Positions 3,846 through 49,083 of a DNA stretch of 64,000 nt are shown piece by piece. The stretch spans positions 1 through 64,000 of the forward strand of contig NZ_BONZ01000040.1 in assembly GCF_016862975.1 (NCBI RefSeq). The letters are read 5' to 3'. The position numbers and the translations under genes are program-made. The stretch comes from Rugosimonospora africana. GTDB taxonomy: Bacteria > Actinomycetota > Actinomycetes > Mycobacteriales > Micromonosporaceae. The number at the start of each line of letters is the position of its first letter. The stretch's first letter is position 1. Under the pieces are notes generated by a model, which did no database searches, was not told where the DNA came from, and saw only the letters and a list, made by a program, of their open reading frames with translations.

Positions 3846-4745
3846 TCACCAGCCCACGCCGAGGTCCCACTCGGGATGCTCGCTGATCGGGTGCCGCGCG
3901 GTGTCCACGGTCGCGGTCAGCAGCGTGTCCGGGTGTTCCCGCAGCAGCGTCATCGGGTACTCCGCGGTGACCGGGCCGAACAGCGCCACCCGCAGCGCGG
4001 TCTGTTTCCACGCGCCGGTGTCGCTGAACAGCCGGATCCGTTTCGCCGCAAGGATCTCGGCGAGGCCGAGCGTCACCGACATCGGCGGGACGAACTGGTA
4101 CGCGCCGCCGAACGTGCGTTGGGCGAGCGCGATGACGGTGTCCGGGTTGTTGTCCTGTACCCGTGCGGTCGACGCGCGCAGCCGCGCCACAGACAACGGG
4201 CTGTACGGGTTGCGGCGCGCCTGGTTGTACGCGACGTGCCCGTCCTGCCCCCAGCCGCCGTACACGAGGTCAGCCGGTCGGGCGAGCAGGTCGGCGGAGA
4301 TGGCGGTGATGGTCCCCGGTTCCGGCCAGTGCCGGTGGTGTTCCGGCACGGCGAGCGCCGGGTCGACGGGTCCATAGAACTCGCGCTCCATGAATCCGCG
4401 GAAGCTGTACGGGTGGCTGCGCGGCAGCGGCTTGCCCTCCCAGTCCAGGCACTCGTCCATGTGGAACACCTCGACGTGGGTCAGGCTCATCCGTTCGGCG
4501 TTGACGAGCGCGGTGAACGGCTCGTACCAGCAACTCGGCCCGCACGGCAGGATCGTCCGCAGGGTACGCCCGGCGCGGCCGGCCGCCGCGATCTCGTCGA
4601 CCAGCTCGCGGGCCATGAGCCGGCCCATCTCGGCGCTGTCGCGGCAGATGCGCAGCGCCATCCGGCGGTCCGGGTGGTCGGCCAGCTCGCCGGCCGGAAT
4701 CCGGCACCAGCGCGCCAGATCCTCGGCGGGTATCGGGTCGGTCAT
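3846..4745 (-). CDS. NagB-like sugar-phosphate isomerase/deaminase
   Basis: A 299-residue cytoplasmic enzyme of the glucosamine-6-phosphate deaminase / 6-phosphogluconolactonase fold. The motif HMDECLDW holds the general-base aspartate (D97), and GGWGQDGHVAYN holds the active-site histidine (H170), as in NagB. It is longer than NagB (about 265) and the flanking sequence is divergent, so deamination of GlcN-6-P itself is not assured. Its ATG overlaps the stop of the GH4 gene upstream as ATGA, and the kinase follows directly. The neighbours suggest that it acts on the sugar released or oxidised by this operon. Confidence 0.82.
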   Translation of the reverse strand: MTDPIPAEDLARWCRIPAGELADHPDRRMALRICRDSAEMGRLMARELVDEIAAAGRAGRTLRTILPCGPSCWYEPFTALVNAERMSLTHVEVFHMDECLDWEGKPLPRSHPYSFRGFMEREFYGPVDPALAVPEHHRHWPEPGTITAISADLLARPADLVYGGWGQDGHVAYNQARRNPYSPLSVARLRASTARVQDNNPDTVIALAQRTFGGAYQFVPPMSVTLGLAEILAAKRIRLFSDTGAWKQTALRVALFGPVTAEYPMTLLREHPDTLLTATVDTARHPISEHPEWDLGVGW

Positions 4746-45313: not shown

Positions 45314-45856
45314 ATGGCTACGCTGATCTACTCGGCCACCATGTCGCTGGACGGCTTCATCGCCGGCCCGGGAGGCGACATGTCCTGGCTGACCGCTCAC
45401 ATCGGCCCCGACCCCGCGGTGGAGGACCTGATCCCGCGCATCGGCGCGCTGCTCGTCGGCCGGCGCACGTTCGGCGGTGACGATCCCCACCGCGGTACGG
45501 AGAAGGAGGGCAAACCGTTCGGCGGCGGCTGGAGCGGCCCGCAGTTCGTCCTCACGCACCACGCCCCGGACGTCGAGTACCCGGACGTGACATTCGTCGG
45601 TGACCTGAACACGGCGGTCGCCGCGGCGAAGGCGGCGGCCGGCGACAAGTACGTGAACGTCCTCGGTGCCAGCGTCGCCGCGCAGTGCCTGGACGCGGGC
45701 GTGCTCGACGAGATCTTCGTGGGGATCGCCCCGGTCATGCTCGGCGACGGCGTCCGGCTGTTCAACCACCCGGGCGGGAAGAGTGTCGCGCTGGAGCGCT
45801 TTGCCCTGACCTACACGGCGAACGTGACGAACCTTCGGCTGCGGGTGGCCGGATAA
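45314..45856 (+). CDS. Dihydrofolate-reductase-family protein (RibD C-terminal-like)
   Basis: A 180-residue protein of the DHFR/RibD reductase fold, beginning LIYSATMSLDGFIAGPGGDM and ending LFNHPGGKSVALERFALTYT. Members are NADPH-binding proteins rarely shown to reduce folate. GGAGG before the ATG fixes the start. It lies 129 bp after the sigma-factor gene and may be read through from it or belong to its regulon. Confidence 0.9.
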   Translation: MATLIYSATMSLDGFIAGPGGDMSWLTAHIGPDPAVEDLIPRIGALLVGRRTFGGDDPHRGTEKEGKPFGGGWSGPQFVLTHHAPDVEYPDVTFVGDLNTAVAAAKAAAGDKYVNVLGASVAAQCLDAGVLDEIFVGIAPVMLGDGVRLFNHPGGKSVALERFALTYTANVTNLRLRVAG

Positions 45857-46013
45857 GCGCACGGGGCCCCAGACGGGATGTACCGCGCCGGGCCGTTCCG
45901 GCGTGGTACGCCCGGTTCCGGGCAGCGGGGGCTTAGAGCGGCGGGCGGGAGGGCTGCAACTGCCCATTCCTCCGTCCGCAGACGTATGAATCCGTCGGTG
46001 TTAGTGTCGTTTT

Positions 46014-46573
46014 GTGCAGCTGGCCGAGCGGGCGCGCCATGATGGTGTACATCCACAGACCGCGTATCGCTGGTTTCGTGGGGGACGATACCGGTGCCCG
46101 TTCGGCGTGTTTCGTCGCGCACGATCATGGTGGGGGTGGCTGACGCAGCGCGGCAGGGTCAGGTCGTCGTCTACGCCCGGGTGTGGTCGGTCGATCAGCG
46201 AGCTGACTTGGATCGGCAGGTCGCTCGGGTGACGCAAGGGTGACCTGGCAGGACCTGGCAGTTTCGCGGTGGTGACCGAGGTCGGATCCGCGGTGAACGG
46301 GCGGTGCAAGAAGATTCTCGGGCTGTTGCGCGAGGGGAACGTGACGACGGTCGTGATCGAGCGTCGGGATCGGTTCGCGGGGTTCGGCGTCGAGTATGTT
46401 GAGGCGGTGTTGGCCGGGTCGGGGTGGTCGATCCAGCCGAGGCCGACGACGACCTCGTGCGGAATGTCACGGAGATCCTCACTGGTCTCTGCGTCCGACT
46501 GTATGGCCGCCGGGCAGCGGTGAACCGGGCCAGCCGCGCGGTGGTCGCCGCTACCGCCAGGGACGTTCCGTGA
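46014..46573 (+). pseudogene. tnpA: IS607 serine recombinase TnpA, frameshifted
   Basis: Pieces of one IS607 resolvase are spread over several frames. The MerR-like head is LAERARHDGVHPQTAYRWF (from 46014). A second frame from about 46082 reads VVVYARVWSVDQRADLDRQV and stops at 46243. A short third frame gives WQDLAVSR. VVTEVGSAVNG then continues from 46269, and the tail DDDLVRNVTEILTGLCVRLY is in the frame that ends at 46573. At least four frameshifts are needed. The usual catalytic serine in YARVSS is a tryptophan here. The gene cannot make active transposase. Confidence 0.88.
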
Positions 46574-47997
46574 AGCGGTACGAGCCGCCAGAGGGCTGGG
46601 TCGTGCAGGCGTACCGGTTTGCCCTCGACCCGAGTGACGTTCAGGTTCTGGGTCTACGCCGTAACAGCGGTGCGGCCCGGTTCGTCTACAACTACATGCT
46701 GGGGCGGGTCAGCGCGGTGAAGGCACAGCGTGCTGCCGAGGCCAGCTATGGAGTAGCCGAGGCGGACCTGACGCCGTGGCAGGGCTGGTCCCTGCCGGAG
46801 CTGCGGCGGACCTGGAACGAGATCAAGCAGTGGGTGGCGCCGTGGTGGGCACAGTGTTCCAAGGAGGCGTTCAACACCGGTCTGGCGAACCTGTCCGCCG
46901 CACTGGGCAACTGGCACGCTTCACGCGCCGGCGCCCGCAAGGGCCGTCGGATGGGCTTTCCCCGCGTGAAGAAGAAACAGGGTCGTAGGTCGGTCCGGTT
47001 CACCACCGGCGCGATCCGGGTCGAGGCTGATTATCGGCATGTGGTGCTGCCCCGGCTGGGTCGCATCCGCACCCATGAGTCGACCCGCAAACTGGCCCGC
47101 CGGGTACGGGCGGGCACCGCGACGATCCTGTCCGCCACGGTTACCGAGACCGCTGGCAGGTGGTTCTGCTCGTTCCAGGTCGCGGTTGGGCGCACGGTCG
47201 GCCGGCCGGCGCACGCGCCGAAAGCCGGCCTAGTCGTCGGCGTGGACGCTGGGATCAGGCACTTGGCGGTGCTGTGTACCGGCGAGATGGTGCCGAACCC
47301 GGCGCCGTTGAAGGCCGCGTTGAACAAACTGGGTAAGGCTCAACGCCGGGCCGCCCGCAGGGTGGGGCCATACGACCCGGCCACCGGCCGCAAGCAGGCC
47401 CCGTCGCACCGGTGGCAGCGGGCACAGCACGCGGTGGCCCGACTGCACGCCACCGTCTGCGCCGTCCGCGCCGACTCATGGCACCAACTCACCACCCGCC
47501 TGGCCCAACAGTTCACCACGATCGTGGTCGAGGACCTCCACGTGGCCGGCATGATGCGCAACCGCAAGCTCGCCAGATCCCTGACCGACGCCGCACCGGC
47601 GACCCTGCGCCGGCACCTCGGCTACAAGACCGGCTGGTACGGCAGCACGCTATACGTCGCCGACCGGTGGTACCCCAGCTCCAAGACGTGCTCCGCCTGC
47701 CAGACCGTGAAACCCAAGCTGTCGCTGGCCGAGCGCATGTTCCACTGCACCATGTGCGGACTGTCCCTGGACCGGGACGTCAACGCCGCACGTAATCTTG
47801 CCGCGCTCGTGCGGCACGTCGACCTGGAGTTGCCGGGCGACGCGAAAACAGGACGTGGAGCCTACGTAAGACCCGCAAGACCTGCATCCGCAGGCGGGGC
47901 GGCGGGCCGTGAAGCGTCTAGACCGGTCCAACCGGTCAACGTCGCCCGGCAACAGGCGACTGCCAATCATGAGTCACGTTTACTCACTGAGAGGTAA
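46570..47997 (+). CDS. tnpB: TnpB, RNA-guided RuvC nuclease of IS607
   Basis: A 475-residue TnpB (OrfB_IS605 family), the ancestor type of Cas12 nucleases. The RuvC catalytic residues are all present: D226 in VGVDAGIRHLA, E321 in VVEDLHV and D403 in DRDVNAARN. The zinc ribbon CSACQ/CTMCG is also complete. The GTG start overlaps the tnpA stop. The reading frame is open throughout, in contrast to the ruined tnpA. The C-terminal 60 residues are Ala/Arg-rich, where the guide RNA is expected to overlap. It could still cut DNA at the empty donor site or have been kept for another role. Confidence 0.93.
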   Translation: MKRYEPPEGWVVQAYRFALDPSDVQVLGLRRNSGAARFVYNYMLGRVSAVKAQRAAEASYGVAEADLTPWQGWSLPELRRTWNEIKQWVAPWWAQCSKEAFNTGLANLSAALGNWHASRAGARKGRRMGFPRVKKKQGRRSVRFTTGAIRVEADYRHVVLPRLGRIRTHESTRKLARRVRAGTATILSATVTETAGRWFCSFQVAVGRTVGRPAHAPKAGLVVGVDAGIRHLAVLCTGEMVPNPAPLKAALNKLGKAQRRAARRVGPYDPATGRKQAPSHRWQRAQHAVARLHATVCAVRADSWHQLTTRLAQQFTTIVVEDLHVAGMMRNRKLARSLTDAAPATLRRHLGYKTGWYGSTLYVADRWYPSSKTCSACQTVKPKLSLAERMFHCTMCGLSLDRDVNAARNLAALVRHVDLELPGDAKTGRGAYVRPARPASAGGAAGREASRPVQPVNVARQQATANHESRLLTER

Positions 47998-48054
47998 CGG
48001 TAATACACCGAGGTCAGGCGTGATCGGATCATCGCAGCACCCGCAGGAGTACCC

Positions 48055-49083
48055 GTGTCTCACCATCTCGACTCGCCGCTGTCCCTCCAGGACACCCGGC
48101 TCAACCTGACCGACCAGTTCGTGTTTCCCGGCGAGAGCGGAACCGTCTTCATCATGGATGTGAACAGTTCGGCGGCGGGATCCGACGCGAAGCCCGGTTT
48201 CCACCCGGAAGGCCGCTATGAGTTCAAGATCCATCGGAACGCCTCGGAGGTCGAGGACCTCACCTACCGGGTGAGTTTCGAGGAGGCCGACGGGGACGGC
48301 GAGCAGGCTCTCCGGCTCACGATGCTGACCGGGTCGGACGCGTCCGACGACGGCGCCGACGGCGAGACGATCGCCGAGGGGCGGACGAACGCGCCGGTCG
48401 ACGGCGTGTCGGGGATGCGCGCCTGGGCGGGGCGGGTGGTCGACCCGTTCTACATCGACCTGAACCAGCTGGCCACGATCGAGGACGCGGTCAAGAACGG
48501 GAAGCGGATCGATTCGGGTGACTGGCGGCCGGACGCCGCGAAGAACAGCTTCAACGACGCGACGGTCCACTCGATCGTCCTGGAGGTACCCGATGACGAC
48601 CCGAACCTGGGTTCGGGCACGGACATCGCGTGTTGGATCTCGACCCAACTGGCCACCGACGCGGGCGGCTGGCGGCAGATCAACCGGGAGGGTCACCCGA
48701 TGGTGTGGCCGATCTTCCGGCAGCTCAACGACGACTGGGCGACCAACGCGAACACCCGCCACCCGGACAGCGACGCGGGCGAGGAGGGTTCGCACATCGC
48801 GGAGCTGATCGCGGGCGTGGTCGCGGCGAACGGTACCTGCGACGACCCGGCCGCGTACGGCAGGGCGGTGGCCCGGCGCCTGCTGCCGGACGTGATGCCG
48901 TACCGGATCGGTACTCCGGCGAGTTACGGGTTCCTCGGGTTCAACGGCCGCGCGCTGTCCGACAACGCGCCCGAGGCGATGTTCTCGCTGGTGATGAACG
49001 CCGCCATCACCACCGGCCTGTCGCCCGCGCAGTTCAGCTCCACCCGGTCCGAGCTGTTCCCCTACGTGGTCTCGGCGCACTGA
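48055..49083 (+). CDS. DUF4331-family protein
   Basis: A 342-residue protein of the DUF4331 family, recognised by the start SHHLDSPLSLQDTRLNLTDQ and the beta-rich core. No signal peptide is seen, although many relatives are secreted. Function is unknown. AGGAG six bases before the GTG fixes the start. It begins 58 bp after tnpB ends, so the IS may have inserted into its upstream region. GC-rich near-repeats with GGCGCGCCGAGCC follow its stop. Confidence 0.85.
   Translation: MSHHLDSPLSLQDTRLNLTDQFVFPGESGTVFIMDVNSSAAGSDAKPGFHPEGRYEFKIHRNASEVEDLTYRVSFEEADGDGEQALRLTMLTGSDASDDGADGETIAEGRTNAPVDGVSGMRAWAGRVVDPFYIDLNQLATIEDAVKNGKRIDSGDWRPDAAKNSFNDATVHSIVLEVPDDDPNLGSGTDIACWISTQLATDAGGWRQINREGHPMVWPIFRQLNDDWATNANTRHPDSDAGEEGSHIAELIAGVVAANGTCDDPAAYGRAVARRLLPDVMPYRIGTPASYGFLGFNGRALSDNAPEAMFSLVMNAAITTGLSPAQFSSTRSELFPYVVSAH

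What the first reader, a model, noticed from the sequence alone, without database searches (positions are those of the whole stretch)
46005..48005. Intact TnpB beside a ruined TnpA
The recombinase has at least four frameshifts and Trp in place of its catalytic Ser, while TnpB keeps an open frame, D226/E321/D403 and the zinc ribbon. TnpB may be under selection for a non-transposition role, or be young enough not to have decayed. The 3' end should carry a guide RNA whose guide is the DNA just after the element, the DUF4331 promoter.
Basis: partly seen in the sequence, partly recalled or inferred. Interest (0 to 1): 0.62.

Follow-up and report, generated by a model that had tools for sequence, protein, structure and literature searches.

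The report
Stranded transposon nuclease with guide RNA
A small jumping gene in this bacterial genome has lost the enzyme that moves it, but its RNA-guided DNA-cutting enzyme and matching guide RNA still look intact; this is a known kind of leftover, made interesting by signs that the cutter kept being preserved after the mover died.

Summary
Window 45954-48000 is an IS607-family element. Its serine recombinase TnpA has four frame-breaking deletions and Trp for the catalytic Ser. TnpB (46570-47997, 475 aa) is open, with D226/E321/D403 and the zinc ribbon. Fourteen close relatives from nine genomes fix the ends. A covariation-supported guide-RNA scaffold (47909-48000) stops exactly at the right end, so the guide is 48001-48020. 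The left flank ends GAGGG, a published IS607 TnpB target motif. No identical copy and no intact IS607 TnpA was found in the assembled genome, though one contig ends inside another such element. On the window branch tnpA changes are mostly amino-acid-altering (24:5), tnpB changes are not (21:26); a second lineage (Dactylosporangium sucinum) repeats this. A codon-likelihood test does not by itself exclude simultaneous recent release (p 0.08). Best reading: a stranded TnpB-guide RNA homing module aimed at its own empty site. Dead TnpA beside live TnpB is already published as common in IS607, so this is a new member of a known kind. Unexpected: the catalytic Arg or Ser of TnpA is lost in 10 of 59 otherwise open relatives.

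The parts
45949..45953 (+). GAGGG, host DNA just left of the element: presumed target-adjacent motif of the empty site
   Evidence: same motif measured for 4 of 22 IS607 strains in PMC11061315 (passage); left flanks of 14 of 15 close elements finish in GGG, the other (L073) has no readable left end; GGG is at 2.4% of positions
45954..48000 (+). whole IS607-family element, left end CTGCAACTG to right end GAGAGGTAACGG
   Evidence: alignment with relatives; exact empty site of relative L078
46014..46573 (+). ruined tnpA (serine recombinase with N-terminal HTH): four frame-breaking deletions
46184..46186 (+). TGG (Trp) where relatives have the catalytic Ser codon
46570..47997 (+). tnpB, 475 aa, RuvC D226/E321/D403 and zinc ribbon intact
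47909..48000 (+). 3' scaffold of the guide (omega/re) RNA: three hairpin regions, overlaps the end of tnpB
48001..48020 (+). guide segment (flanking host DNA): TAATACACCGAGGTCAGGCG
   Evidence: unique in the own genome within 3 mismatches
48055..49083 (+). DUF4331 gene downstream of the insertion

Best explanation
This is an IS607-family insertion whose recombinase has died, leaving a stranded but apparently complete TnpB plus guide RNA module. The tnpB mRNA 3' end carries the scaffold (shown by covariation); TnpB should process it (inferred from other TnpBs) into a guide RNA whose last 16-20 nt copy the host DNA at 48001-48020. In the inserted allele that sequence is preceded by AACGG instead of the target motif, so the cell does not cut itself (inferred). 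An allele without the element would read GAGGG-TAATACACCGAGG and would be cut, and repair from an element-bearing copy would put the element back (inferred, as published for TnpB homing and drive). This needs no TnpA, which can explain why tnpB stayed under purifying selection while tnpA decayed.
For: Intact TnpB and catalytic residues. Guide RNA scaffold found in 79 of 82 other loci searched, 22 of 24 pairs with compensatory changes, 134 cells against 31.3 in shuffles. Right end finishes in AACGG and flank follows. In relative L078 the insertion point equals the empty site of four of four relatives checked, CCCCGAYGGGG|TGAAG, no bases gained or lost. Window-unique changes: tnpA N24:S5, tnpB N21:S26 (Fisher p 0.0016); D. 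sucinum N25:S6 against N23:S26 (p 0.0045); the other 13 elements show no difference, 41:33 against 84:62, p 0.78. ML omega of tnpB on the window branch 0.113 against 0.079 background, not raised (p 0.13), while tnpA is raised, 0.27 against 0.12, p 0.005. Four indels in tnpA (576 nt) and none in tnpB (1428 nt): 0.024 given the first.
Against: A model in which both genes were released at the same recent time is not rejected: 2dL 2.99 for the window, 1.80 for D. sucinum. ML still finds tnpA omega well below 1 on this branch, so TnpA death covers only its last part. No expression data; no sigma70-like promoter in 45850-48200; the normal translational coupling of tnpA and tnpB (GTGA overlap) is broken upstream by the frameshifts. 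No empty allele of this very site was found; nearest DUF4331 homologues are 64-67% identical and their upstream DNA gave no match to the joined flanks. Scaffold pair 40-47 is broken in the window although 38-49 is gained.
Confidence: 0.58

Rival explanations
1. Dead but young: TnpA was lost recently, the whole element is now neutral, and TnpB merely has not had time to decay.
For: Shared-release model fits with about the last 6% of the branch neutral in both genes and is not significantly worse (2dL 2.99). One relative (L077) has both genes broken, as expected of neutral decay.
Against: Four frame-breaking indels plus many missense changes in 560 nt of tnpA against no indel in 1428 nt of tnpB; the shared-release and indel p values combined give about 0.014. 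Same pattern independently in D. sucinum L075.
Confidence: 0.3
2. Trans-mobilised passenger: TnpB is kept because an intact IS607 TnpA elsewhere in the genome still moves the element, as for non-autonomous transposons.
For: One contig of the own genome (C50) ends inside the guide-RNA scaffold of a third IS607 element, so the assembly hides at least part of another element. G220 carries four close copies, some with damaged TnpA.
Against: Search of the own genome with an intact TnpA finds only the ruined copies of the window and C61. Only one copy of the window's element was found.
Confidence: 0.08
3. Host exaptation: TnpB with this guide regulates or protects something useful, for instance the DUF4331 gene next door, as TldR proteins do.
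For: Guide lies in the leader of DUF4331.
Against: RuvC residues are intact, unlike nuclease-dead TldR (nuclease-dead character recalled, TldR as RNA-guided transcription factor from the abstract listed). The guide has no second match in the own genome within 3 mismatches and none (first 16 nt, exact) in viral contigs.
Confidence: 0.04

Closest known systems
IS607-family elements with TnpA(Ser) and TnpB (annotated 'IS607 family element RNA-guided endonuclease TnpB')
   Same: Gene order, overlapping tnpA-tnpB, serine recombinase remnant, GG insertion point without duplication in a relative, guide RNA at the right end
   Different: TnpA dead in this copy
IS607 TnpBs with RAGATH-18-derived reRNA (PMC11061315, passages seen)
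   Same: RuvC TnpB, target motif AGGAG or GAGGG, and 30% of TnpAs pseudo because of a frameshift or stop
   Different: No RAGATH-18 match here; here the scaffold overlaps the tnpB reading frame, there it is separate
TnpB as TnpA-independent gene drive of insertion sequences (PMC11870625, passages seen)
   Same: Would explain retention of TnpB without TnpA
   Different: Shown there on plasmids, not for this element or on a chromosome
ISDra2 TnpB (PMC8612924, passages seen; structures 8h1j, 8bf8)
   Same: Sequence family, catalytic triad, guide from the right flank, proposed homing into the empty allele
   Different: IS200/IS605 element with a Y1 transposase and TTGAT motif

Membership tests
IS607 family | serine recombinase TnpA with N-terminal HTH upstream of TnpB | tested here: met
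   As a remnant: pieces 58% and 45% identical to the intact M. globispora TnpA; intact in relatives
IS607 family | functional TnpA | tested here: not met
   Four frame-breaking deletions, Ser to Trp; autonomy is lost, family origin stands
IS607 family | insertion at GG, no target duplication | tested here: inconclusive
   Met for relative L078 by exact empty sites in 4 of 4 genomes checked; for the window's own site no empty allele was found
OMEGA TnpB nuclease | RuvC D-E-D and zinc ribbon | tested here: met
OMEGA TnpB nuclease | structured guide RNA ending at the right end | tested here: met
   Covariation with shuffles and slid controls; the RNA itself not observed
OMEGA TnpB nuclease | RNA-guided cleavage next to a target motif | not testable with these tools
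   Needs a cleavage assay; motif inferred from left flanks
RAGATH-18 IS607 clade | RAGATH-18 RNA downstream of tnpB | tested here: not met
   No RAGATH-18 match among Rfam hits up to E 5 in 45800-48300
TldR (nuclease-dead TnpB repressors) | inactivated RuvC | tested here: not met
   D226, E321, D403 present; the definition is recalled

The most novel reading that the evidence does not exclude
In this actinobacterial family IS607 elements are repeatedly and perhaps selectively immobilised: TnpA is disarmed at its catalytic Arg or Ser, often in an otherwise conserved open frame, while TnpB and its guide RNA are preserved, giving long-lived static homing cassettes that no longer transpose but defend their own insertion site.
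Probability: 0.15. Interest if true: 0.62.

Novelty: new member of a known kind. Interest (0 to 1): 0.38.

Why it matters
What keeps TnpB genes alive when their transposase is dead is an open question. A pair in which decay can be compared, dead tnpA beside constrained tnpB in the same element and repeated in a second lineage, separates selection on TnpB from selection on transposition, and the predicted 20-nt target makes the homing explanation directly testable.

Tried and rejected
Identical or near copy in the own genome: none; best other is 66% at C61. Rfam family for the guide RNA: none above threshold. Guide target elsewhere: none in the own genome within 3 mismatches, none for its first 16 nt in viral contigs. 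Empty allele of the window's site: not found; the closest DUF4331 homologues are too diverged, and in the listing six of seven loci were printed on the wrong strand, so only L093's upstream could be read there. The M. globispora LtrA insertion (L067) could not give an exact empty site because its host flank has lost about 14 bp. Simple counts of unique changes overstate N because only columns conserved at 70% or more in the others are counted; I therefore use them only to compare genes and lineages that share the filter, and report the ML values beside them.

The first census counts and the first per-column table used a motif- or word-based ORF finder that also picked up tnpB frames in loci without TnpA; I replaced them by the aligned counts. 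The TnpB-anchored census is biased to open TnpB because rows were ranked by TnpB score; the TnpA-anchored one is the control, and gave 4 loci with dead TnpA and open TnpB against 1 of the reverse. The count '9 of 10 frame-disrupting indels in tnpA' (p 1e-4) leaves out two insertion events (+4 in L070; +1 shared by L076, L078, L079, L080) in the last codons of tnpB, inside the guide-RNA overlap; with them it is 9 of 12 and weaker, so I do not rest on it.

Sequencing error as the cause of the frameshifts was considered: unlikely given four lesions, a catalytic substitution and none in the adjacent 1.4 kb, but reads were not available. Structure prediction was not run; sequence matches to solved TnpBs were strong enough.

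Full report
Observation. TnpB is an open frame of 475 aa at 46570-47997. It matches OrfB_IS605, Cas12f1-like_TNB and HTH_OrfB_IS605 and solved TnpB structures. The region upstream, read in three frames, is a serine recombinase. A scan of the GTDB genome contigs with TnpB found five loci, 76-90% identical, in Micromonospora and Dactylosporangium. A search of 354 genomes of the same family gave fourteen places at 77% identity or more besides the window, in nine genomes; all fourteen regions were taken. Aligned to them, the window's tnpA lacks 1, 1, 1 and 13 bases at four places while its tnpB has no indel. Trp stands for the catalytic Ser. The names 'catalytic Ser' and neighbouring catalytic Arg rest on recalled knowledge of serine recombinases.

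Ends. The alignment with relatives puts the left end at 45954, after GGCGGGAGGG, and the right end at 48000, GAGAGGTAACGG. In relative L078 the joined flanks match four of four other genomes inspected (of twelve loci fetched) without gain or loss at CCCCGAYGGGG|TGAAG, so the element sits between GGGG and the right flank. Left flanks of 14 of the 15 close elements finish in GGG; L073 has no readable left end. GGG occurs at 2.4% of positions in these loci. GAGGG, the window's left flank, is the measured target motif of 4 of 22 IS607 strains in PMC11061315 (passage seen).

Guide RNA. The last 92 nt before the right end fold into three hairpin regions in the window and its relatives. On twelve sequences 96.2% of cells pair. 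A covariance model built from them finds the same scaffold in 79 of 82 other loci, mostly with TnpBs near 60% identity; the three misses are L090 (tnpB truncated), L127 (tnpB with stops) and L163 (contig end). On that alignment 22 of 24 pairs show changes on both sides, 134 cells against 31.3 in shuffles; slid controls reach at most 36. The alignment was fitted to the structure, which favours it. The window's GAGAGG, where its closest relatives have GAAAGG, is common in the wider family. Flanking DNA starts at once after the conserved end in the 42 wider-family loci printed (42 of the 79 were given) and in 12 of the 13 close elements readable there, the thirteenth being at a contig end. The guide is therefore 48001-48020. 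It lies 35-54 nt before the DUF4331 start codon; a promoter is not shown.

Is TnpB still constrained? Changes unique to the window: tnpA 24 amino-acid changing and 5 silent, tnpB 21 and 26; D. sucinum L075, also with a ruined tnpA, 25 and 6 against 23 and 26. Fisher p 0.0016 and 0.0045; the other 13 elements pooled show no such contrast, 41:33 against 84:62, p 0.78. For D. sucinum tnpB is 0.070 and tnpA 0.198 against 0.128 (p 0.17). But if both genes were released together for a last fraction of the branch, the fit is only 2dL 2.99 (window) and 1.80 (L075) worse: p 0.084 and 0.18. Indels add p 0.024 for the window after discounting the first lesion. I judge retained constraint more likely than youth, not proven.

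Trans supply. The own genome (219 contigs, 97.3% complete) holds no other close copy; the best is 66% at C61. TnpA is found only at the window and C61, both broken. C61 also keeps an open TnpB and the guide scaffold. A third scaffold lies at the very end of contig C50, so an unassembled element, with unknown TnpA, exists.

How common. Of the next 40 TnpB places in rank order (the own C61 copy skipped; fetched), 9 have a TnpA covering at least 170 of 191 residues with Arg and Ser, 13 a damaged TnpA, 18 none detectable within 1 kb; tnpB is free of stops in 39. Anchored on TnpA instead, 40 loci: 32 with both genes apparently alive, 4 with dead TnpA and open TnpB (L166, L167, L176, L182), 1 the reverse (L144), 2 with both dead (L156, L180), 1 cut by a contig end (L163). 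L090 is a further reverse case outside that sample. Loss of catalytic Arg is counted as dead here, which is an inference. PMC11061315 already reports that 80% of its IS607 loci have both genes and 30% of those TnpAs are pseudo (passage). So the pairing is not new.

Unexpected. Among 59 distinct open-frame TnpAs, Arg56 is replaced in 8 of 58 (Cys 5, Gly 2, Trp 1) and Ser58 in 2 of 59 (Cys, Pro), while Arg19, 68, 121, 139 and 167 never vary. The losses are scattered over the tree, about nine events, one apparently shared by L167 and L176. Most of these proteins are otherwise conserved (mean 1.9 departures at 87 strict columns against 0.96, permutation p 0.06, where L117, with a gap at the Arg, is counted among the lost). 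A C-to-T hot spot could contribute: Arg72, another Ala-Arg, shows Cys twice and Gly once, but the usual Arg56 codon is CGG, which would give Trp, seen once. The window's Ser58Trp fits this pattern.

Mechanism. TnpB homing into the empty allele is proposed in PMC8612924 (passages); PMC11870625 reports that the plasmid advantage of the element is kept with catalytically inactive TnpA and lost with inactive TnpB (passages). That suffices for TnpB to be retained here. Steps shown: gene, active-site residues, scaffold, guide position, site structure in a relative. Steps inferred: transcription, processing, cleavage, repair, selection. Prior reports were sought in the paper library; of PMC10711439 passages were seen, and nothing there bears on dead TnpA.

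Noticed in passing
L071, L080, L112, L140, L166, L167, L176, L180 (Arg56); L036, L135 (Ser58): Catalytic Arg or Ser of the IS607 TnpA is lost in 10 of 59 distinct open-frame relatives, in about nine events, while five other invariant arginines never vary. Selection for immobile elements or a mutational hot spot; unresolved.
   Followed up: partly
L089 (own genome C61:122500-129500): A second IS607 element in the same genome with ruined TnpA, open 460-aa TnpB and the same guide-RNA scaffold at 4326-4427, next DNA TCTCCTTCCCTGGAGCCACC.
   Followed up: partly
L222 3961-4066 (own genome C50:184960-185065, minus strand): Guide-RNA scaffold cut off from its TnpB by the contig end: a third element hidden by the assembly.
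   Followed up: partly
own genome, 18 places: The genome holds 17 TnpB-type TNB domain matches over the Pfam cut-off; in the twelve further stretches fetched no close IS607 TnpA was seen (one weak match in L218).
   Followed up: partly
L075 (Dactylosporangium sucinum copy): Independent case of heavily decayed tnpA (-1, +1, -94, -3, -21) beside open tnpB and a conserved scaffold.
   Followed up: yes
L067/L032 2743-2800: M. globispora copy interrupts an LtrA-like gene (name recalled); about 14 bp of the gene beside the left end are missing compared with intact genes of relatives.
   Followed up: no
window 46558-46573: tnpA stop and tnpB start overlap (GTGA) with an AGGGA ribosome-binding-like stretch just upstream, kept although the tnpA frame now closes far upstream.
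   Followed up: no
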